Assembly: GCF_017068455.1 (NCBI RefSeq)
Contig: NZ_CP070608.1
Coordinates: forward strand, 2,523,488 to 2,587,487
DNA length: 64,000 nucleotides
Direction: 5' to 3'
From: Fulvivirga lutea
GTDB lineage: Bacteria; Bacteroidota; Bacteroidia; Cytophagales; Cyclobacteriaceae
In this document: positions 9,349 to 54,599 of the stretch, piece by piece
Position numbering within the stretch: the first letter of the stretch is position 1
How the letters are laid out: each line of letters starts with the position of its first letter
Notes under the pieces: generated by a model
Told to the model about the DNA's origin: nothing
Database searches by the model: none
Seen by the model: only the letters and a program-made list of their open reading frames with translations
Translations under genes and position numbers: made by a program

Positions 9349-9779
9349 GCCTCTATTTTGCTTTTGAAAGCCAATGCGTATAATTTCATTTGTTTGATCA
9401 TGGCACCAAAGCCATTAGAACGTTGCGTGCCAATAAAGCGTTCCATACCAATTCGTTGTGGGAAGAAGATTTCTGCATCCACAATTTCAGAAGCTTTTTG
9501 CCCTGAAAGTATTCTCACCAACAAGCTAACAAGCCCTTTTGTAATGGCCGTGTTACTGTCGGCTTTAAAAATTACTTTATCACCATCTAACTCAGCAGTT
9601 AGCCATACTTTGGATTGACAGCCTTTTACAATATTATCTTCAGTTCTATCAGTATCGTTAAATTCAGGTAACTTTTGGCCTAATTCCATCACATAGAAAT
9701 TAGTCATTTCCATGTCTCCATCCAGAATGGCGAATTCGTCTATTATTTCTTCCTGTATCTCTTTAATCGATTGACTCAT
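9345..9779 (-). CDS. sufE: SufE cysteine desulfurase activator
   Basis: The 144-residue protein has the SufE core with the sulfur-accepting cysteine C54 in VKGCQSKVW, followed by DSNTAITKGLVSLLVRILSGQ. In the known system SufE takes persulfide sulfur from SufS and passes it to the SufBCD scaffold. Its start overlaps the sufS stop by 4 bases and its stop overlaps sufT by 4 bases, so translation is tightly coupled. Confidence 0.95.
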   Translation of the reverse strand: MSQSIKEIQEEIIDEFAILDGDMEMTNFYVMELGQKLPEFNDTDRTEDNIVKGCQSKVWLTAELDGDKVIFKADSNTAITKGLVSLLVRILSGQKASEIVDAEIFFPQRIGMERFIGTQRSNGFGAMIKQMKLYALAFKSKIEA

Positions 9780-11020
9780 GGCTTTAAAAATTTAACGACT
9801 CTTTGAAGAGCTTCTGTCATTCGATCTATTTCTTCTTTCGTATTATAAACGGAGAAGGAAGCCCTCACAGTTCCTTCAATTCCAAAGTGATCCATTAAAG
9901 GCTGAGTACAATGATGGCCTGTTCTAACTGCAATTCCGCCCGCATCCAGCATTTGGCCAATATCGAATGGGTGTATTCCTTCTATCAGGAAAGAAAGAAC
10001 ACTTACTTTGTGATCTGAATCACCAACGATACGAAGCCCGGGGATTGTTAAAAATTTTTGTCTGGCATATTGCAATAACTCTTCTTCATGAACTGCAATA
10101 CTCTCTTTGCCTGTTTCATCTATGAATTCAAGCGCTTTTTTGAAGGCTATAACATCAGCAATATTAGGCGTACCAGCTTCAAATTTGTACGGGACATCAT
10201 TGTAAGTTGTCTTCTCAAAAGATACTTCTTTTATCATTTCTCCACCGCCCTGGTAAGGAGGCATTGCCTCTAAAAGTTCTCTTTTGCCATAAAGAGCTCC
10301 CGTGCCGGTTGGTCCATAACATTTGTGTGCTGAAATAGCATAAAAGTCACAATCCAAATCCTGAACATCAATGTTTAGATGAGCAGTTGCCTGAGCGCCA
10401 TCAATTAATACTTTTGCTCCAACATTATGAGCCTCTTGTATAATCTCCTTAACTGGGTTGATTGTTCCCAAGCTATTAGACGCATGATTTACCGCAACAA
10501 TCTTAGTCTTGTTAGATAGGAGCGATTTGTAATGGTCCATATCCAGCGTGCCATTATCTAAAACGTTGATAGCTTTAATTATAGCACCTCTTTCTTCAGC
10601 AATCAGCTGCCACGGCACAATGTTGGAATGATGTTCTAACCCACTGATCACAATTTCATCACCCTCGTTCAGAAACTTTCTACCAAAAGAAGAAGCAACC
10701 AGATTGATTCCTTCAGATGTTCCTTTCGTAAAGATTATTTCTTCAACTTCTTTGGCATTCAAAAAGCCTTTTAGATAGTGTCGTGTTTCCTCAAATGCCT
10801 TAGTTGCCTTTTCGGCCAAAGTATGAATGCCTCTATGTATATTGGCATTATATCCTTTGTAATAATCAGCCAAAGCATTAATTACCACTTTAGGTTTCTG
10901 ATTAGTTGCAGCATTATCAAAGTAAATCAAAGGTTTACCATTCACTTCCTGATGAAGCACCGGAAATTCCTCTCTTATTTTACTGATATCTAAGGTCTTT
11001 ATGCTGCTTGTTGAAGGCAT
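9776..11020 (-). CDS. sufS: SufS cysteine desulfurase
   Basis: The 414-residue PLP enzyme (aminotransferase class V) makes persulfide from cysteine for Fe-S clusters. It has the PLP-binding SAHKCYGPTG segment with Lys233, the phosphate-binding GTSEG loop (100-104), and the catalytic loop RTGHHCTQP with C371, a group II (SufS) feature. It lies one base after sufD. Length and motifs are typical. Confidence 0.97.
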   Translation of the reverse strand: MPSTSSIKTLDISKIREEFPVLHQEVNGKPLIYFDNAATNQKPKVVINALADYYKGYNANIHRGIHTLAEKATKAFEETRHYLKGFLNAKEVEEIIFTKGTSEGINLVASSFGRKFLNEGDEIVISGLEHHSNIVPWQLIAEERGAIIKAINVLDNGTLDMDHYKSLLSNKTKIVAVNHASNSLGTINPVKEIIQEAHNVGAKVLIDGAQATAHLNIDVQDLDCDFYAISAHKCYGPTGTGALYGKRELLEAMPPYQGGGEMIKEVSFEKTTYNDVPYKFEAGTPNIADVIAFKKALEFIDETGKESIAVHEEELLQYARQKFLTIPGLRIVGDSDHKVSVLSFLIEGIHPFDIGQMLDAGGIAVRTGHHCTQPLMDHFGIEGTVRASFSVYNTKEEIDRMTEALQRVVKFLKP

Positions 11021-11021
11021 A

Positions 11022-12338
11022 TTAAAAGTCTTTATGTAATCTTTCTGAAATCAGATTTTCAAGGAAATTTTTAAGCGGATCAAGCTTTACTGTTTCTAAT
11101 ACCTCAATAGCAAATGCATAAAGTAGTAGAGCCCGTGAGCTATCTTTACTTAATCCACGTGAGCGCAAATAAAATAGTGCATCTTCGTCAAGCTGGCCTG
11201 TTGTACAGCCATGCGAACATTTAACATCGTCTGCCCAAATTTCCAGCTGAGGCTTTGTGTTCACCACAGCAGTATCAGATAACAATATATTTTTATTAGA
11301 TTGAAAAGCATTGGTTTTCTGTGCTTCCTTACGCACAAACACTTTTCCATTAAATACTCCCTTAGCAGTATCTTCTAAAATGCCTTTATACAGCTCATTA
11401 CTCTCACAATGCGGCTGAACGTGATCAACTGCTGTATGATTATCTACATGTGTTTTACCGTTAATAAGATAAAGCCCATACATATTTGTTTCGCAGCCTT
11501 CGCCATCAACAGTTACATTCAGATTATTTCTTATGATAGCCCCATTCAGCGTAAATGTATAGGCTGAAAATACGCTTGAACGAGATTGATGCACCTGCGT
11601 AGTGCCTACCTGATAAGCAGTTTCTTTATTATTTTGTACTCTATAATAGCCAATATGAGCGTTTTCATCTATCACAACTTCAGAAGCGATATTAGAAAAA
11701 CTAGATTCATTACCTTCAGTTAGAAAAAACTCAAGAAAATTAGCTTGTGAACTTTTTCCGGCTATCACAAGATTTCTGGAGTTAGAATATACTGTAGACT
11801 CAGAAGAATCATTAATAAAATATAATGCTATTGGCTTTTCAACAACTATGTTATCAGAAACGTGAATTAAAGCACCATCTTCGGTAAGGGCAGTATTGAG
11901 AGCCAAAAATGCATCTCTGTTACTTTTAGCTGCTTTACCAAAGTACTTGTTCAATGATTCATCGTTCTCTTCAATGGCCTGTTGAATATTCTTTACCGTA
12001 ACACCTTTAATATCTATTTTATCAGATAATTCCGATGAATAAACACCATTAATAAATACCAATTTGTGAACATCTAACCCCTCAATATCCAGTTTCTGAA
12101 TTGCTTCTTTCTGAATTTTTGAATTGAACTGATGTGGAATTGAGTTAAACTCCTTTTCCAGTATTTTTGTAATGTTGGTGAATTTGTATTCCTCATTTTT
12201 TGGGGATGGTAAACCAATAGTATTCAGCAAATCCATCGCCTCTTTTCTGTTCTTATGAAAATCAGAAGAAGTGTTTAATGAATTAAAACGATTTACTATA
12301 CCTTCCATTACTTTGCTTTTTTCTGCTAATTCTGCCAT
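11022..12338 (-). CDS. sufD: SufD, SufBCD scaffold subunit
   Basis: The 438-residue beta-helix protein shows the conserved SufD C-terminal half: DNHTAVDHVQPHCESNELYKGIL, GVFNGKVFVRKEAQKTNAFQ and the DDVKCSHGCTTGQLDEDALFYLRSRG motif with its cysteine and histidine. It forms the SufBCD complex with the neighbouring SufB and SufC. Seven bases separate it from sufC. N-terminal half is divergent, as is usual in the family. Confidence 0.95.
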   Translation of the reverse strand: MAELAEKSKVMEGIVNRFNSLNTSSDFHKNRKEAMDLLNTIGLPSPKNEEYKFTNITKILEKEFNSIPHQFNSKIQKEAIQKLDIEGLDVHKLVFINGVYSSELSDKIDIKGVTVKNIQQAIEENDESLNKYFGKAAKSNRDAFLALNTALTEDGALIHVSDNIVVEKPIALYFINDSSESTVYSNSRNLVIAGKSSQANFLEFFLTEGNESSFSNIASEVVIDENAHIGYYRVQNNKETAYQVGTTQVHQSRSSVFSAYTFTLNGAIIRNNLNVTVDGEGCETNMYGLYLINGKTHVDNHTAVDHVQPHCESNELYKGILEDTAKGVFNGKVFVRKEAQKTNAFQSNKNILLSDTAVVNTKPQLEIWADDVKCSHGCTTGQLDEDALFYLRSRGLSKDSSRALLLYAFAIEVLETVKLDPLKNFLENLISERLHKDF

Positions 12339-12345
12339 AAATAGA

Positions 12346-13104
12346 TTAAGCTGTTGCGTTAGCTTCTTCCTTTATCCAATCGTAACCTTTCTCTTCTAAT
12401 TCAAGTGCTAAATCTTTGTTGCCTGATTTAACGATTCTGCCATTGTACAATACATGTACAAAATCAGGAACGATGTAATCCAATAATCTTTGATAGTGAG
12501 TTACCACTATTGTAGCGTTATCTTTTGACTTTAATTTATTAACACCATTGGCAACTATTTTCAAGGCGTCAATATCAAGACCTGAATCAGTTTCATCAAG
12601 TATTGATAATTTTGGCTCTAACATCGCCATTTGGAAGATTTCATTTCTTTTCTTCTCACCACCGGAGAAACCTTCATTCAATGATCTGCTAAGAAGTGAC
12701 TGATCAATCTCAACTAATTGCATTTTCTCCTTCATTATTTTAAGGAAGGAAACAGCATCTAAAGGCTCCAGACCTCTATACTCTCTCACTTGATTGAGCG
12801 CTGTTTTCATGAAGTTGGTTGTGCTTACACCTGGAATTTCTATTGGGTATTGAAATGCAAGAAATACGCCTTCTCTGGCTCTTTCTTCTGCAGCTAAATC
12901 CAAAAGATCTTTGCCATCGAAATCAATTTCACCTTTATCTACTTCATAATCTTCCCTTCCTGCAAGTACTGAAGCTAAAGTACTTTTACCCGAACCATTA
13001 GGTCCCATGATGGCGTGTACTTCACCTGCTTTTACTTCCAGATTAATTCCTTTTAAAATTTCTTTACCCTCAATTGAGGCGTGTAAGTTTTTTATTTTAA
13101 GCAT
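12346..13104 (-). CDS. sufC: SufC ATPase
   Basis: The 252-residue ABC ATPase has Walker [10 protein letters not shown] (35-43), the signature [17 protein letters not shown] and Walker [13 protein letters not shown], a SufC-specific sequence. It drives conformational change of SufB-SufD during cluster assembly. The 56-base gap to sufB contains a short AGTTAGTA-like repeat. Confidence 0.97.
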
Positions 13105-13106
13105 AC

Positions 13107-13127
13107 TAGTAATTAGTAGTTAGTATT
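13107..13127. repeat. AGTTAGTA-type repeat before sufC
   Basis: The stretch tagtaattagtagttagta lies directly before the sufC start and resembles the repeats before the bacilliredoxin gene. Both are 5' of a minus-strand gene in the same operon. Confidence 0.45.
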
Positions 13128-13160
13128 TGATAATTAAAATATGTCTGAATTTGAGTTTGA

Positions 13161-14606
13161 TTAACCAACAGAACCCTCAAGAGTAAGAGCCAACAGCTTT
13201 TGAGCTTCAACGGCAAACTCCATTGGTAATTGATTAAGAACCTCCTTACAATATCCATTAACAATGAGTGCTACGGCACTTTCTTCATCGATACCTCTTT
13301 GTGTACAATAGAATATCTGGTCTTCACCAATTTTTGAGGTTGTAGCCTCGTGCTCTACCTGAGCAGTGCTATTCTCAATATCTATGTATGGGAATGTATG
13401 TGCACCGCACTGGTTACCCATAAGCAAGGAATCGCATTGTGAGAAGTTTCGAGCACCTTCAGCACGTTTCATTACATGCACCTGACCTCTGTAACTGTTT
13501 TGTGAATGCCCTGCAGATACACCTTTAGAAACAATTCTTGACTTGGTATTTTTACCAATGTGAATCATTTTAGTGCCAGTATCTGCTTGTTGGTAATTGT
13601 TAGTTACTGCTACTGAATAAAATTCACCTTGAGAATTATCACCTTTTAGTATACAAGAAGGATATTTCCAGGTTACGGCAGAACCAGTTTCAACTTGTGT
13701 CCAGGAGATTTTTGAATTATCGCCAGCGCACAAACCTCTTTTTGTAACGAAGTTGTAAATACCACCTTTACCATTCTTATCACCTGGGAACCAGTTTTGA
13801 ACGGTAGAATATTTTACTTCAGCATCTTTAGCAGCATATATTTCTACAACAGCTGCATGTAACTGATTTTCATCTCTTTGTGGAGCAGTACAACCTTCTA
13901 AATATGATACGTAAGAAGAATCTTCTGCGATAATGAGCGTTCTTTCAAACTGACCAGTATTTGCCGCATTAATTCTAAAGTACGTTGATAACTCCATTGG
14001 GCATCTTACTCCTTTTGGTATATAGCAAAATGATCCATCAGAAAATACAGCGGAATTCAGTGCTGCAAAGAAATTATCTCCCGCAGGCACTACAGATCCT
14101 AAATACTTTCTTACTAATTCAGGATGCTCTTTTACAGCTTCACTAAATGAACAGAAAATAACTCCCAATTCGGCAAGCTTATCTTTAAAGGTAGTTGCCA
14201 CAGAAACGCTATCAATAACAGCATCCACAGCTACACCTGTTAATCTTTTTTGTTCCTCTAAAGAAATCCCCAATTTCTTGAAAGTTTCTCTCAATTCAGG
14301 ATCAACTTCATCAAGGCTATTTAATTGCTTTTTCTTTTTAGGAGCCGAATAGTAAATGATATCCTGATAATCTACAGCAGGGTAGGTTACGTTAGGCCAT
14401 TTCGGCTCTTTCATTTTTTGCCATTTGCTAAAGGCATTTAGTCGCCATTCAAGTAGCCACTCGGGCTCTTCTTTTTTGGCTGATATAAAACGTATAGTAT
14501 CTTCTGTCAAACCTTTTGGGGCCTGATCAGATTCAATATCAATACTCCAACCGTGTTCGTACTCTTTGGAGGTAAATTCCTCTAAAATTTGATCGTCTTT
14601 ACTCAT
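13161..14606 (-). CDS. sufB: SufB, SufBCD scaffold subunit
   Basis: The 481-residue protein carries the highly conserved SufB sequence: [71 protein letters not shown] and the final [23 protein letters not shown]. It is the first gene of the operon sufBCDSE-sufT and scaffolds Fe-S cluster formation. No A-type carrier (sufA) gene is in the operon. A -7 box lies 35 bases upstream. Confidence 0.97.
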
Positions 14607-14720: not shown

Positions 14721-15197
14721 TTACTTATGAGCCTGAGTAATAGGAATAGGCCTGTTAATGCTTTCTTCTAGTGAAATCATTGTTTCTGTCCTTGTTATTC
14801 CATCTACACGCTGAATTTTATCATGTAATAAGTCTTTTAGATGCTGAGTGTCTCTGCAATTGATTTTAGCAAACATGCTATAGTTGCCAGTAGTATAATG
14901 CACATTGGTTATCTCTGGTATGGCTTTTAGTTGATTGATAACATCATCATAAAGCGCACTTTTAGCCAGAAAAATACCGATGAAGGCAGTGATATCGTAT
15001 CCTAACTTGGTATTGTCAATTTCAAGTGTGGTGCCTGTTACAATACCTGCTTCCTCCATTTTGCGCATTCTAACATGCACAGTACCACCTGAAACAAATA
15101 CCTGCTTAGCTACTTCGGTATAAGGTTTTTTAGCATTCTTCATGAGAATATCTAAAATCTGAAGATCCACATTGTCAATTTCTAAATTTTGAGGCAT
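14721..15197 (-). CDS. Lrp/AsnC family transcriptional regulator
   Basis: The 158-residue protein has an N-terminal helix-turn-helix (about 8-60, with DLQILDILMKNAKKPYTEVAKQVFVSGGTVHVRMRKM) and a C-terminal RAM ligand-binding domain (GYDITAFIGIFLAKS and NVHYTTGNYSMFAKI). Such regulators sense amino acids. It lies 114 bases before sufB on the same strand, but sufB has its own promoter box, so it need not belong to the operon. Confidence 0.93.
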   Translation of the reverse strand: MPQNLEIDNVDLQILDILMKNAKKPYTEVAKQVFVSGGTVHVRMRKMEEAGIVTGTTLEIDNTKLGYDITAFIGIFLAKSALYDDVINQLKAIPEITNVHYTTGNYSMFAKINCRDTQHLKDLLHDKIQRVDGITRTETMISLEESINRPIPITQAHK

Positions 15198-15306: not shown

Positions 15307-15314
15307 TATATTTG
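15307..15314 (+). promoter_or_regulatory. -7 box before the tRNA-like RNA
   Basis: TATATTTG matches TAnnTTTG and is identical to the box before the tRNA cluster at 54274. It places the start of transcription near 15321, about 15 bases before the RNA. The rest of the gap from 15198 is AT-rich with nothing else recognisable. Confidence 0.6.
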
Positions 15315-15334: not shown

Positions 15335-15452
15335 CTGTAGGGTGTTGAAACAGGCAGACAAGCCCTCCGGTCTCGAGGGTGAAGAGTTCAGGATAAATCC
15401 GCCACCCGGCTGGACTAACTGCTTCGTGGAGGTTCGAATCCTTCTCCTACAG
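15335..15452 (+). ncRNA. Atypical tRNA-like RNA with enlarged core
   Basis: The ends form an 8-bp acceptor-like stem (CTGTAGGG with TCCTACAG). A T-arm precedes the 3' strand (GGAGG-TTCGAAT-CCTTC, 15428-15444). After the 5' strand comes a leucine/serine-type D arm (TG, then TTG-AAACAGGCAGA-CAA, ending at 15361). Between them lie 66 bases instead of the roughly 35 of a tRNA-Leu, and no standard anticodon loop with T33 is present. The obvious 5-bp hairpin (CCCTC-CGGTCTC-GAGGG) has G where T33 should be. An alternative nested fold pairs AGGCAG with CTGCTT, GCC with GGC, and GGGTG with CACCC. No CCA is encoded. It could be an aberrant tRNA or a tRNA-mimicking small RNA. Confidence 0.6.
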
Positions 15453-15482
15453 CTCTCATTATTGTAAGTTTAATTGTTGCTC

Positions 15483-15517
15483 AAAAAGCGGTTCTAATAG
15501 AACCGCTTTTTTTATTT
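15483..15517 (+). terminator. Rho-independent terminator after the tRNA-like RNA
   Basis: AAAAAGCGGTTCTA pairs with TAGAACCGCTTTTT around a tiny loop and runs into T residues. It lies 30 bases after the RNA and shows that the RNA is a separate short transcription unit. Confidence 0.9.
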
Positions 15518-15573: not shown

Positions 15574-17247
15574 ATGAGTGATAAAGTTTGGTTAAAGAGC
15601 TATCCCAAGGGACTTCCTTCCGAAATAGATGCCTTAAAGCATAATTCTTTAGTAGAGATGTTTGAAGAGGCATTTGATAACTATAGATCCCAAGTGGCTT
15701 TTGAAAATATGGGAAAATCCCTGACCTATGATGAGGTGGATAAGTTGTCAATGCAATTTGCCGCATATCTTCAAAAAGAATGTGGGCTGAAGAAAGGGGA
15801 TACGTTAGCCATACAAATGCCAAACTGTCTTCAATATCCTGTGGTATTAATGGGTGGACTGAGAGCAGGCTTGAAAATCGTAAATACAAATCCATTGTAT
15901 ACGGCCAGAGAAATGGAGCATCAATTCAAAGATGCGGAGGCTAAAGCCATTGTTATAGTTGAGAACTTCGCATATAACTTGGAGAAAATCATTTCCAACA
16001 CCCAAATTGAGCATGTAATTACAACTGGTCTTGGTGATTTGCTTGGCGGACTTAAAGGTGGAATTGTAAATTTTGTTGTCAAGTATATCAAAGGAATGGT
16101 TCCTAAGTTTAACTTACCTAAAGCCGTTTCTATTAAGACTGCGCTGGCTAAGGGCGCTAAACTTTCGTTAGATAAACCAGCAATTTCACAGGAAGACTGT
16201 GCTTTTTTACAGTATACCGGAGGTACTACCGGTGTTTCGAAAGGGGCAATGCTTTCGCATAGAAATGTGCTTTCGCACACAGAACAGATCATTTGGTGGT
16301 TTAACCCGCTTTTAGAAGAAGGTAAAACGGAAGTAATGGTTACAGCCATTCCTCTTTATCATATTTTCGCGCTGACTGTGAACGGTATTTTTATGTTCAA
16401 AATAGGGGCTAAAAATATCTTAATTACAAACCCACGAGACATGAAAGCCTTCCTGGGTGAGTTGAAGAAACAGAAATTCACTCTGATGACCGGTGTGAAT
16501 ACACTTTTCAATGGGATGCTTAATCAGCCTGACTTTGAAAAAATTGACTTCTCTGCTTTGAAAGCTACTATTGGTGGAGGTATGGCTGTGCAGGATTTTG
16601 TTGCCGAGAAATGGCAGAAAGTTACAGGCACACCATTATGCGAAGGGTACGGGCTAAGTGAAACGTCTCCTGTATTATCATGTAATCCATTAGATGGTAC
16701 ACATAAGAGAGGCACTATTGGTTTACCTACGCCAAGTACAGATATGGCCATTTTTGACGAAAATGGTAATCAATTGCCTCAAGGGGAAATTGGTGAAATT
16801 TGCGCCAGAGGGCCACAAGTAATGAGTGGCTATTTAAATAAAGATAACTCTCAGGTATTCTTTGAAGGTGGCTGGTTTAGAACTGGTGATATGGGTATGA
16901 TGGATGAGCAGGGCTTCTTTAAGATTGTGGATCGCAAGAAAGACATGATTAACGTATCTGGCTTTAATGTTTATCCGAATGAAGTGGAAAATGTTATTGC
17001 TAATCATGAAAAAGTATTGGAAGTAGCTGCTATAGGTGTACCAGATGATAAATCAACAGAAGCGGTGAAAGTATTTATTGTGAAGAGTGATCAGTCATTA
17101 ACGAAAGAAGAGGTAGATGCCTATTGTGACGAAAATCTTACTGGCTATAAAAGACCAAAGTATATTGAATTTCGTGATGAACTGCCGAAATCTAATGTGG
17201 GTAAAATTATAAGGCGAGAGTTAAGAGACGCAGAAGAAGCCAAGTAA
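15574..17247 (+). CDS. Long-chain fatty acid-CoA ligase (FadD type)
   Basis: The 557-residue AMP-forming ligase has the phosphate loop YTGGTTGVSKGAML (214-227), the adenylation motif EGYGLSETSP, the GWFRTGDMG motif and the C-terminal DRKKDMINVSGFNVYPNEVE and hinge region, with a catalytic lysine in the final KSNVGKIIRRELR. It activates fatty acids to acyl-CoA through acyl-AMP. The next gene, a membrane glycosyltransferase, starts 20 bases later on the same strand, but no functional link is obvious. Confidence 0.94.
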   Translation: MSDKVWLKSYPKGLPSEIDALKHNSLVEMFEEAFDNYRSQVAFENMGKSLTYDEVDKLSMQFAAYLQKECGLKKGDTLAIQMPNCLQYPVVLMGGLRAGLKIVNTNPLYTAREMEHQFKDAEAKAIVIVENFAYNLEKIISNTQIEHVITTGLGDLLGGLKGGIVNFVVKYIKGMVPKFNLPKAVSIKTALAKGAKLSLDKPAISQEDCAFLQYTGGTTGVSKGAMLSHRNVLSHTEQIIWWFNPLLEEGKTEVMVTAIPLYHIFALTVNGIFMFKIGAKNILITNPRDMKAFLGELKKQKFTLMTGVNTLFNGMLNQPDFEKIDFSALKATIGGGMAVQDFVAEKWQKVTGTPLCEGYGLSETSPVLSCNPLDGTHKRGTIGLPTPSTDMAIFDENGNQLPQGEIGEICARGPQVMSGYLNKDNSQVFFEGGWFRTGDMGMMDEQGFFKIVDRKKDMINVSGFNVYPNEVENVIANHEKVLEVAAIGVPDDKSTEAVKVFIVKSDQSLTKEEVDAYCDENLTGYKRPKYIEFRDELPKSNVGKIIRRELRDAEEAK

Positions 17248-54330: not shown

Positions 54331-54420
<90 letters not shown>

Positions 54421-54432
54421 AGAAGACTTTTC

Positions 54433-54509
54433 GGTTCCGTAGCTCAACTGGATAGAGCAACTGCCTTCTAAGCAGTAGGTTCGGGGTTCGAGTCCCTGCG
54501 GGATCACCA
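54433..54509 (+). tRNA. tRNA-Arg (TCT)
   Basis: Acceptor GGTTCCG with CGGGATC (two G-T pairs), D-arm AGCTCAACTGGATAGAGC, anticodon loop CTTCTAA with TCT, T-loop TTCGAGT. A 3' ACCA is encoded here, unlike its neighbours. Confidence 0.94.
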
Positions 54510-54518
54510 CATAAAGTT

Positions 54519-54593
54519 CGGGGCGTAGCGCAGTCCGGTTAGCGTACCTGGTTTGGGACCAGGGGGTCGCAGGTTCGAATCCTGCCGCCCCGA
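54519..54593 (+). tRNA. tRNA-Pro (TGG)
   Basis: Acceptor CGGGGCG with CGCCCCG, anticodon loop TTTGGGA with TGG, T-loop TTCGAAT, discriminator A, no CCA encoded. Confidence 0.95.
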
Positions 54594-54599
54594 CATAAC

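What the first reader, a model, noticed from the sequence alone, without database searches (positions are those of the whole stretch)
15335..15452. A tRNA-like RNA that is not a normal tRNA
The element has three true tRNA parts: acceptor stem, T-arm with TTCGAAT and a leucine-type D arm. The region that should hold the anticodon and variable arm is about 66 bases, roughly 30 too many, and has no canonical anticodon loop. It has its own TATATTTG box and a perfect Rho-independent terminator, so it is a stand-alone gene and not decay. A nested alternative fold (AGGCAG with CTGCTT, GCC with GGC, GGGTG with CACCC) would give a long arm in place of the anticodon arm. This resembles tRNA-mimicking RNAs such as YrlA (bacterial Y RNA), or a strange Leu/Ser/Sec-type tRNA. 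Both are guesses.
Basis: partly seen in the sequence, partly recalled or inferred. Interest (0 to 1): 0.65.

Follow-up and report, generated by a model that had tools for sequence, protein, structure and literature searches.

The report
Undescribed tRNA-like RNA of Bacteroidota
The window holds a stand-alone gene for a tRNA-shaped RNA with an oversized side arm and an anticodon loop unlike that of a working tRNA; close relatives occur in many Bacteroidota bacteria and in viral sequences, and its job is still unknown.

Summary
The element is real: window 15336-15452 (+), plus C74 at 15453, with a promoter box and a strong terminator. ARAGORN and Rfam 15 miss it. It belongs to an RNA family for which I found no description: 77 of 98 relatives, 31 of 296 genomes sampled across the phylum, and at least 93 viral contigs. 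Covariation supports a full tRNA cloverleaf (95.5% of pair cells paired; 231 double changes against 63 in shuffles). The window's loop, CGGUCUC, lacks U33 and a purine at 37. U35-C36-Y37-C38 (34 usually G) and G73-C74 are kept, close to the aspartate identity set, on a tRNA-Leu-like body. In 48 of 84 viral loci it lies with tRNAs, often 5 nt away, so it is probably matured like a tRNA. In 53 of 73 relatives it lies divergently beside one Lrp/AsnC regulator. YrlA is excluded. Best guess: a tRNA-derived RNA, perhaps charged by AspRS, acting outside normal decoding. Function is inferred, not shown.

The parts
15307..15314 (+). TATATTTG, Bacteroidota-type -7 promoter box (TAnnTTTG)
   Evidence: Read. 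Similar boxes are seen by eye upstream of many homologues and of the window's tRNA-Ser. The consensus is recalled, not from a call.
15336..15453 (+). the tRNA-like RNA: acceptor to G73 (15452) and C74 (15453)
   Evidence: Model R1 scores 123.9 bits, window 15336-15453, E 1e-34. The window copy was one of the 48 sequences the model was built from. Covariation.
15336..15342 (+). acceptor stem, 5' strand TGTAGGG (pairs with 15445-15451)
   Evidence: 95 of 95 cells paired at each of 7 pairs in the second sample.
15345..15361 (+). D arm: 3-bp stem TTG/CAA, loop AAACAGGCAGA
   Evidence: two of three pairs vary with their partner; the outer pair is unpaired in 6 of 48 and 10 of 98.
15363..15379 (+). 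anticodon arm CCCTC-CGGTCTC-GAGGG; loop 15368-15374, anticodon position GTC at 15370-15372
   Evidence: Nearly constant in the pattern-chosen set; the stem varies with its partner in samples not chosen by it.
15381..15425 (+). giant variable arm: base stem GAAG/CTTC, second stem CAG/CTG, internal loop GATAAA...CTAA, apical hairpin
   Evidence: total length differs widely between homologues.
15428..15444 (+). T arm GGAGG-TTCGAAT-CCTTC
15445..15451 (+). acceptor stem, 3' strand TCCTACA
15483..15513 (+). intrinsic terminator
14721..15197 (-). Lrp/AsnC-family transcription regulator, divergent neighbour
   Evidence: Pfam PF01037 and PF13412; same arrangement in 68 of 116 homologous loci with an upstream ORF and in 53 of 73 genomes.
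15574..17247 (+). AMP-binding (acyl-CoA ligase type) gene downstream, a neighbour rather than a part
   Evidence: Pfam PF00501; an ORF beginning with a similar sequence is seen by eye beyond the locus in two relatives.

Best explanation
Shown by sequence: the element is a gene of an RNA family, undescribed as far as I could find, with a tRNA-Leu-like body, a hugely enlarged variable arm and an anticodon loop that, in the window's lineage, does not fit decoding. Strongly suggested: it is cut out and given a CCA end like a tRNA. Inferred: the fixed parts (G73, G2-C71, usually G34, U35, C36, C38) let aspartyl-tRNA synthetase bind or charge it. The RNA then serves outside ordinary decoding, as an Asp-RNA donor, an AspRS ligand or a regulatory tRNA mimic, with the variable arm as an effector (in viral copies also a self-pairing) module. 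In hosts its transcription is probably linked to the divergent Lrp/AsnC regulator.
For: Cloverleaf by covariation, seen again on 99 distinct model matches in loci chosen by similarity to the window's DNA or as model hits, not by the anticodon arm. That sample was aligned by the model and partly overlaps its training set. Of 84 viral loci, 48 have a tRNA or tmRNA in the locus, 24 have a tRNA 5-16 nt upstream and 15 a tRNA or tmRNA 5-26 nt downstream, all same strand; 10 have both (near-identical contigs not removed). C74 follows G73 in 96 of 96; of this genome's 33 tRNA genes printed, 31 end in a C without a full CCA and 2 encode CCA. Loop in 99 sequences: U35 99, C36 99, C38 99, G34 91, no purine at 37. 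In 129 viral copies in register: G34 128, U35C36 129, C38 127. Bacterial aspartate identity: G73, G34, U35, C36, C38, with G2-C71 (PMC9976931, passages). The short variant in G071 is called tRNA-Asp by ARAGORN. All 33 printed host tRNAs have U33 and a purine at 37.
Against: G1-C72 and G10, also in the bacterial aspartate set, are not met: the family has U1-A72 in 95 of 95 and G10 in only 10 of 98. G34 is A in 6 and C in 2 of 99. Two relatives (G022, G055) have a copy with acceptor, T arm and a middle hairpin but no D or anticodon arm, and G055's copy lacks G73, so AspRS reading of the loop cannot be universal unless these are decaying copies. G024, with its Lrp gene intact, has no element. The large arm might clash with AspRS. 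G73 plus a large arm equally recalls SerRS. U33 in 57 of 99 and in 115 of 129 viral copies leaves decoding open in other lineages. There are no expression or charging data here. The Lrp link could be frozen synteny; in 20 of 73 genomes the two are apart.
Confidence: 0.4

Rival explanations
1. A decoy or bait for anticodon nucleases: the RNA offers a tRNA-Asp-like loop so that a ribotoxin spends itself on it. Both hosts and phages would gain.
For: Viral copies lie among tRNAs in 48 of 84 loci. The loop is more constant than the stem around it. A competitive-inhibitor role was proposed for the tRNA-like part of YrlA (PMC7790460, passage).
Against: Present in 77 of 98 genomes, wide for a defence accessory. 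I did not search for a linked toxin gene. G33 in 34 of 99 changes the loop a nuclease would read.
Confidence: 0.15
2. A trans-acting small regulatory RNA in a tRNA coat, controlled by the divergent Lrp/AsnC protein in the style of GcvA-GcvB (recalled), acting through its loop or variable arm.
For: Divergent Lrp/AsnC gene in 53 of 73 genomes with both and in 68 of 116 loci. Own promoter box and terminator.
Against: Viral copies lie among tRNAs or near terminase genes. Such a role does not explain keeping G2-C71, G73-C74 and the tRNA core.
Confidence: 0.17
3. An unusual serine-accepting tRNA (allo-tRNA-like): large arm and G73 make it a SerRS substrate with a non-serine anticodon.
For: Large variable arm, G73, G2-C71 and R4-Y69 (93 of 95) belong to the bacterial serine set. 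Allo-tRNAs with GUC anticodons exist (PMC7609411, passage). In 17 of 24 viral loci with an abutting upstream tRNA, that tRNA is tRNA-Ser.
Against: A72 instead of C72, and C11-G24 in only 8 of 98; 7/5 rather than 8/4 or 9/3 acceptor-T geometry. Model cross-hits in the genome favour tRNA-Leu (54.4, 52.0, 45.2 bits) and tRNA-Tyr (42.2) over tRNA-Ser (36.3, 30.4, 27.2); the fourth tRNA-Leu (CAA) is not listed. The G071 variant has no large arm.
Confidence: 0.12
4. A working decoding tRNA for Asp codons with an oversized arm.
For: U33 in 57 of 99 and in 115 of 129 viral copies; GUC mostly kept; the G071 variant is a 77-nt tRNA-Asp to ARAGORN.
Against: The window's own copy has G33 and U37; no purine at 37 in 99 of 99, one in 129 viral copies. 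The genome has a normal tRNA-Asp, and so do seven of the viral loci scanned (L162, L172, L183, L186, L191, L201, L206).
Confidence: 0.1
5. A bacterial Y RNA of the YrlA type.
For: Shares tRNA mimicry (a tRNA-like domain of YrlA is mentioned in PMC7790460, passage; further likeness recalled).
Against: No Rfam Y RNA hit; no TROVE gene in the own genome or in 85 of 98 genomes, while 77 of 98 have the RNA.
Confidence: 0.01
6. A decayed tRNA or a chance resemblance.
For: Reduced copies exist; minimum free energy no better than shuffles.
Against: Covariation in acceptor, D, variable and T helices and in the anticodon stem; wide conservation.
Confidence: 0.01

Closest known systems
tRNA-Leu (class II tRNA)
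   Same: 7-bp acceptor, U8-G9, 3-bp D stem, GG in the D loop, U44, two bases between variable arm and T stem, T loop, C74. Model R1 cross-hits Leu(GAG) best, 54.4 bits.
   Different: G73 instead of A73 (the four host tRNA-Leu have A73); variable arm several times longer; loop N33-N34-U35-C36-Y37-C38.
tRNA-Asp
   Same: Loop like CUGUC.C, G73, G2-C71; host tRNA-Asp loop is CTGTCAC.
   Different: U1-A72, G10 mostly absent, pyrimidine 37, long variable arm, Leu-type D arm.
allo-tRNA and tRNA-Sec
   Same: Enlarged variable arm, G73, odd anticodons (allo-tRNA).
   Different: Those have 8/4 or 9/3 (allo-tRNA) or 13-bp (tRNA-Sec) acceptor-T arms (PMC7609411, passages); this has 7/5.
YrlA bacterial Y RNA
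   Same: tRNA mimicry.
   Different: No Rsr gene in the own genome, no Rfam match, true acceptor ends.
tmRNA
   Same: tRNA-like ends; found in the same phage stretches (L172, L201).
   Different: No tmRNA match at the element, full anticodon arm, U3-A70 not G3-U70 (the latter recalled).
GOLLD/ROOL phage RNAs
   Same: Often near phage tRNA islands; homo-oligomers with kissing loops (PMC12286853, abstract and passages). Viral copies of this family often carry self-complementary stretches.
   Different: Far larger, not tRNA-shaped, separate Rfam families (GOLLD).

Membership tests
canonical elongator tRNA | cloverleaf with acceptor, D, anticodon, T helices | tested here: met
canonical elongator tRNA | U33 and purine 37 in a 7-nt anticodon loop | tested here: not met
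   Window loop CGGTCTC; purine 37 in 0 of 99; all 33 printed host tRNAs have both. U33 is present in 57 of 99.
canonical elongator tRNA | scores as tRNA with ARAGORN or RF00005 | tested here: not met
   for the window copy; exception: the 77-nt variant in G071, found by ARAGORN.
canonical elongator tRNA | aminoacylated and used on the ribosome | not testable with these tools
   Needs an acid gel and polysome profiling.
YrlA Y RNA | Rsr/Ro60 protein in the genome | tested here: not met
   Absent in own genome and in 85 of 98 genomes; 13 of 98 have it.
YrlA Y RNA | match to an Rfam Y RNA family | tested here: not met
   No Y RNA match.
allo-tRNA / tRNA-Sec | 8/4 or 9/3 (allo-tRNA) or 13-bp (tRNA-Sec) acceptor-T arm | tested here: not met
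   7/5; base -1 is T 109, C 104, A 36, G 1 of 250, so no eighth pair with G73 is kept.
tmRNA | ARAGORN/Rfam tmRNA match and G3-U70 (recalled) | tested here: not met
   U3-A70 in 94 of 95.
AspRS substrates (bacterial identity set) | G73, U35, C36, C38, G2-C71 | tested here: met
   96/96, 99/99, 99/99, 99/99, 95/95; set. Whether AspRS charges it is not tested.
AspRS substrates (bacterial identity set) | G34 | tested here: inconclusive
   91 of 99 G, 6 A, 2 C.
AspRS substrates (bacterial identity set) | G1-C72 and G10 | tested here: not met
   U1-A72 95/95; G10 in 10 of 98.
GOLLD/ROOL | match to the Rfam GOLLD or ROOL model | tested here: not met
   GOLLD found at other places of three of ten viral loci, not at the element; no such hit at the window element.

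The most novel reading that the evidence does not exclude
A third kind of tRNA-shaped housekeeping RNA beside tRNA and tmRNA: a non-decoding, aspartylated (or AspRS-bound) RNA kept through several orders of Bacteroidota, multiplied in tandem arrays, carried by phages in tRNA/tmRNA/GOLLD islands, and in phages fitted with self-pairing loops for dimer formation.
Probability: 0.25. Interest if true: 0.92.

Novelty: new variant of a known kind. Interest (0 to 1): 0.76.

Why it matters
A structured RNA found in 77 of 98 relatives and at least 93 viral contigs is missed by the tRNA finder and the RNA library used here. It has a complete tRNA core and a loop that should not decode in the window's lineage, so it puts a clear question: what is a tRNA for when it does not read codons? 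The fixed residues name a testable partner (AspRS, with SerRS as the control), the divergent Lrp/AsnC gene a testable regulator, and the viral copies a second genetic system.

Tried and rejected
Free-energy folding of the single copy: uninformative, z = 0.22. YrlA: rejected. tmRNA and Sec/allo-tRNA: rejected by geometry and search. BLAST of one short copy against annotated phages and plasmids: no match; one query only, so not proof of absence. DNA similarity hits at E up to 1 (96 of 98) were not used as presence, since weak hits may be ordinary tRNAs; model hits were used. A second AspRS paralogue was looked for only as a family count: 3 PF00152 genes in the own genome, not told apart.

Papers: nine keyword searches, seen as listings; none of the listed titles and abstract starts describes this RNA. 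Passages only were read of PMC7609411, PMC9976931, PMC12286853 and PMC7790460. The library is partial and holds no bioRxiv. Two papers looked up, by a DOI believed to be the allo-tRNA paper and by PMC id for the Y RNA tRNA-mimic paper, were not held.

Limits. The 250 elements, and A4 drawn from them, were chosen by an anticodon-arm pattern (scans) or, for 20 loci, by DNA similarity, then filtered by that same pattern and a required AGC end; 266 were found, 16 lacked the end and were dropped. Loop and end statistics are therefore quoted only. fixes acceptor and D arm by its pattern and contains near-identical contigs; 8 of its 137 copies are out of register and were left out of the loop counts. 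In one search I entered, the best Lrp place for 83 of 84 genomes and elements for 74 of 77 (not every extra copy); G093, whose element adjoins Lrp by its coordinates, is among those left out. Phylum and relatives scans with R1 used stricter filters. That the viral contigs are phages of Bacteroidota was not tested; terminase and portal neighbours support phage origin for some. Bacteria outside Bacteroidota were not searched with the model. Palindrome counts cover 43 distinct viral and 23 distinct host stretches where the GACCAC anchor was found; the rest were dropped, and shuffles there kept base composition only. The own genome's tRNA list is incomplete (no tRNA-Ile is in it).

Full report
What is there. 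The element runs from 15336 to 15452 (+) in the window, with a C at 15453. Read as a tRNA: acceptor TGTAGGG/TCCTACA, U8-G9, D stem TTG/CAA with loop AAACAGGCAGA, G26, anticodon arm CCCTC-CGGTCTC-GAGGG, U44, a long variable arm (15381-15425), two bases, T arm GGAGG-TTCGAAT-CCTTC, G73, C74. A TATATTTG box lies at 15307-15314 and a terminator at 15483-15513 (fold z -5.79). ARAGORN and Rfam at gathering score find three tRNAs elsewhere in the window and nothing here. A lax Rfam scan gives only sub-threshold hits, many of them over the terminator.

The anticodon arm is not missing. The surplus bases are a variable arm: base stem GAAG/CTTC, a second stem, an internal loop GATAAA/CTAA and an apical hairpin of variable length.

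Is the fold real? A DNA search of relatives, a pattern scan of named genomes and a scan of viral contigs gave many copies. On 48 diverse copies RNAalifold finds 25 pairs, 14 with double changes; it does not predict the D stem. My 32-pair structure has 95.5% of cells paired, 231 double-change cells (shuffles 63.3, slid versions at most 55) and a covariation score of 0.465 against 0.177. These copies were chosen by the anticodon-arm sequence, so that stem hardly varies among them (no pair with a double change). In a second sample, taken by similarity to the window DNA or as model hits, 99 distinct matches pair at 95 of 95 in each acceptor position, and the anticodon stem varies with its partner (CCCTC/GGGGG, CCGTC/GACGG, CCCGC/GCGGG and others; one stem pair fails in 4 of 98). 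That sample was aligned by the model. In viral copies found by their acceptor and D arm, 129 of 137 have a five-pair anticodon stem in register, with many different sequences. The second stem of the variable arm is weaker at its outer pair (57 of 94), and the third stem is irregular. Free energy does not show the fold: z = 0.22 for the window copy.

What is fixed. In the 99: U35 99, C36 99, C38 99, G34 91 (A 6, C 2), position 37 T 91 or C 8, position 33 T 57, G 34, A 6, C 2; G73-C74 96 of 96; U1-A72 and G2-C71 95 of 95. In the 129 viral copies in register: G34 128, U35C36 129, pyrimidine 37 128, C38 127, U33 115. The own genome's 33 printed tRNAs all have U33 and a purine at 37; 31 end in a C without a full CCA and 2 encode CCA. 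The element therefore shares the tRNA-gene ending of its genome but not the decoding loop.

Kinship. Model R1 finds one copy in the own genome at 123.9 bits. The next hits are tRNA-Leu(GAG) 54.4, Leu(TAA) 52.0, Leu(TAG) 45.2 and tRNA-Tyr 42.2 bits, then tRNA-Ser at 36.3, 30.4 and 27.2; Leu(CAA) is not listed. The genome has a normal tRNA-Asp with loop CTGTCAC. Contig G007:C33 of the same genus has the length of NZ_JAESIY010000004.1, Fulvivirga sediminis, so the window is probably from that genus.

Distribution. Among 98 genomes (own included) 77 have a match at E up to 1e-16: 52 of 60 in the own family and 25 of 38 elsewhere in the order. In an even sample of the phylum, 31 of 296 genomes have a match at E up to 1e-20: all 8 of the own family there, 8 of 10 of f24, 5 of 7 of f23, 5 of 5 of f27, both of f11, both of f66 and one of two of f13. 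The other f13 genome has a 77-nt variant at 4.6e-17. The weaker matches listed, of about 83-88 nt, look like ordinary class II tRNAs (those of the own genome are tRNA-Leu and others). Named carriers include Dyadobacter, Spirosoma, Cyclobacterium, Algoriphagus, Flammeovirga, and Chitinophaga and Saprospiraceae assemblies. Tandem arrays occur: for instance six copies in G092 and three in a row in G012 and G079.

Hosts. In 68 of 116 loci with an upstream ORF the neighbour is a divergent Lrp/AsnC gene like the window's (13 of the 68 loci were chosen by similarity to the window). In 53 of the 73 genomes with both entered, the two are divergent neighbours at 124-230 bp; in 20 they are apart. This is an old arrangement. 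It may be functional or frozen.

Viral copies. Of ten viral loci scanned with Rfam, three have GOLLD and two of these tmRNA beside canonical tRNAs (more tmRNA by ARAGORN). Of 84 viral loci, 48 have a tRNA or tmRNA in the locus, 24 have a tRNA 5-16 nt upstream (17 of them tRNA-Ser) and 15 have a tRNA or tmRNA 5-26 nt downstream, all on the same strand; ten have both, four of these with 5 nt on each side. No host locus of 128 abuts a tRNA. Such spacing implies excision by the tRNA enzymes (inference). In 46 of 165 viral loci a nearby gene falls in a cluster whose tested member is a terminase large subunit, and in 15 a cluster whose tested member is a portal protein. Some viral copies have an extra stretch, by eye a hairpin, in the D loop. 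Self-complementary stretches of at least 8 nt follow the GACCAC motif in 24 of 43 distinct viral copies (shuffles 5.5%) and in 2 of 23 host copies (shuffles 4.3%). This suggests dimer formation, as by the kissing loops of GOLLD and ROOL (PMC12286853, abstract and passages); it is not shown, and small hairpins are not excluded.

Variants that cut both ways. G071 has a 77-nt copy without the large arm, which ARAGORN calls tRNA-Asp(ATC). G055 and G022 have copies beside Lrp with acceptor, T arm and a middle hairpin but no D or anticodon arm (folds z -1.67 and -3.28); the G055 copy also lacks G73. G024 has none. The parts can be lost separately. I cannot tell decay from specialisation.

Mechanism. 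Bacterial aspartate identity rests on G73, G34, U35, C36 and C38, with G1-C72, G2-C71 and G10 (PMC9976931, passages). The family keeps the first five, with a few exceptions at 34, and G2-C71. It lacks G1-C72 and mostly G10. The serine set shares G73, G2-C71, R4-Y69 and a large arm, but has C72 and C11-G24, which the family mostly lacks. LeuRS is unlikely with G73, since the four host tRNA-Leu have A73. I therefore put AspRS first, at modest confidence. G33 and U37 in the window's copy make ordinary decoding unlikely there. What the charged or uncharged RNA then does is open.

Known families. YrlA is excluded. Allo-tRNA and tRNA-Sec differ in stem lengths (PMC7609411, passages). No Rfam family matched the window copy at gathering score or one viral copy at E up to 1, and none of the nine paper searches listed such an RNA.

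Verdict. A real, widespread RNA family, apparently undescribed; tRNA-derived and probably tRNA-processed; non-decoding at least in the window's lineage; function unproven.

Noticed in passing
L008:1138-1280 and L008:1318-1450 (-): Two neighbouring copies in which the D-arm and anticodon-stem region is replaced by an 18-nt perfect palindrome, TCCCGATAGCTATCGGGA.
   Followed up: no
L172, L183, L201: Viral contigs with 20-26 ARAGORN tRNA/tmRNA genes in one stretch plus GOLLD RNA and the element; tmRNA in L172 and L201.
   Followed up: partly
L308:188-264 (-): 77-nt version without the long arm, called tRNA-Asp(ATC) by ARAGORN; could be annotated as an ordinary tRNA.
   Followed up: partly
L465:176-262 (+) and L476:558-671 (-): Copies beside the Lrp gene lacking D and anticodon arms but keeping acceptor, T arm and a hairpin.
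   Followed up: partly
window 54331-54594 and the own genome: Of 33 tRNA genes printed, 31 end in a C without a full CCA and only 2 encode CCA.
   Followed up: partly
long variable arms, e.g. L031:3446-3607 (GGGTGGACCAC), L147:211-353 (GGGTTGACCAC): A recurrent GGGTTGACCAC-like motif inside the long forms of the variable arm, in both hosts and viral contigs, of unknown role.
   Followed up: no
L190:12808-12883: ARAGORN reports a tRNA with a four-base anticodon (agtc) in a viral contig that also holds the element's motif.
   Followed up: no
window 9776-14606 (-): Genes that look like a suf iron-sulphur assembly cluster (by eye) next to the Lrp gene; a neighbour of about 481-484 aa recurs as second upstream gene in 17 homologous loci.
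   Followed up: no
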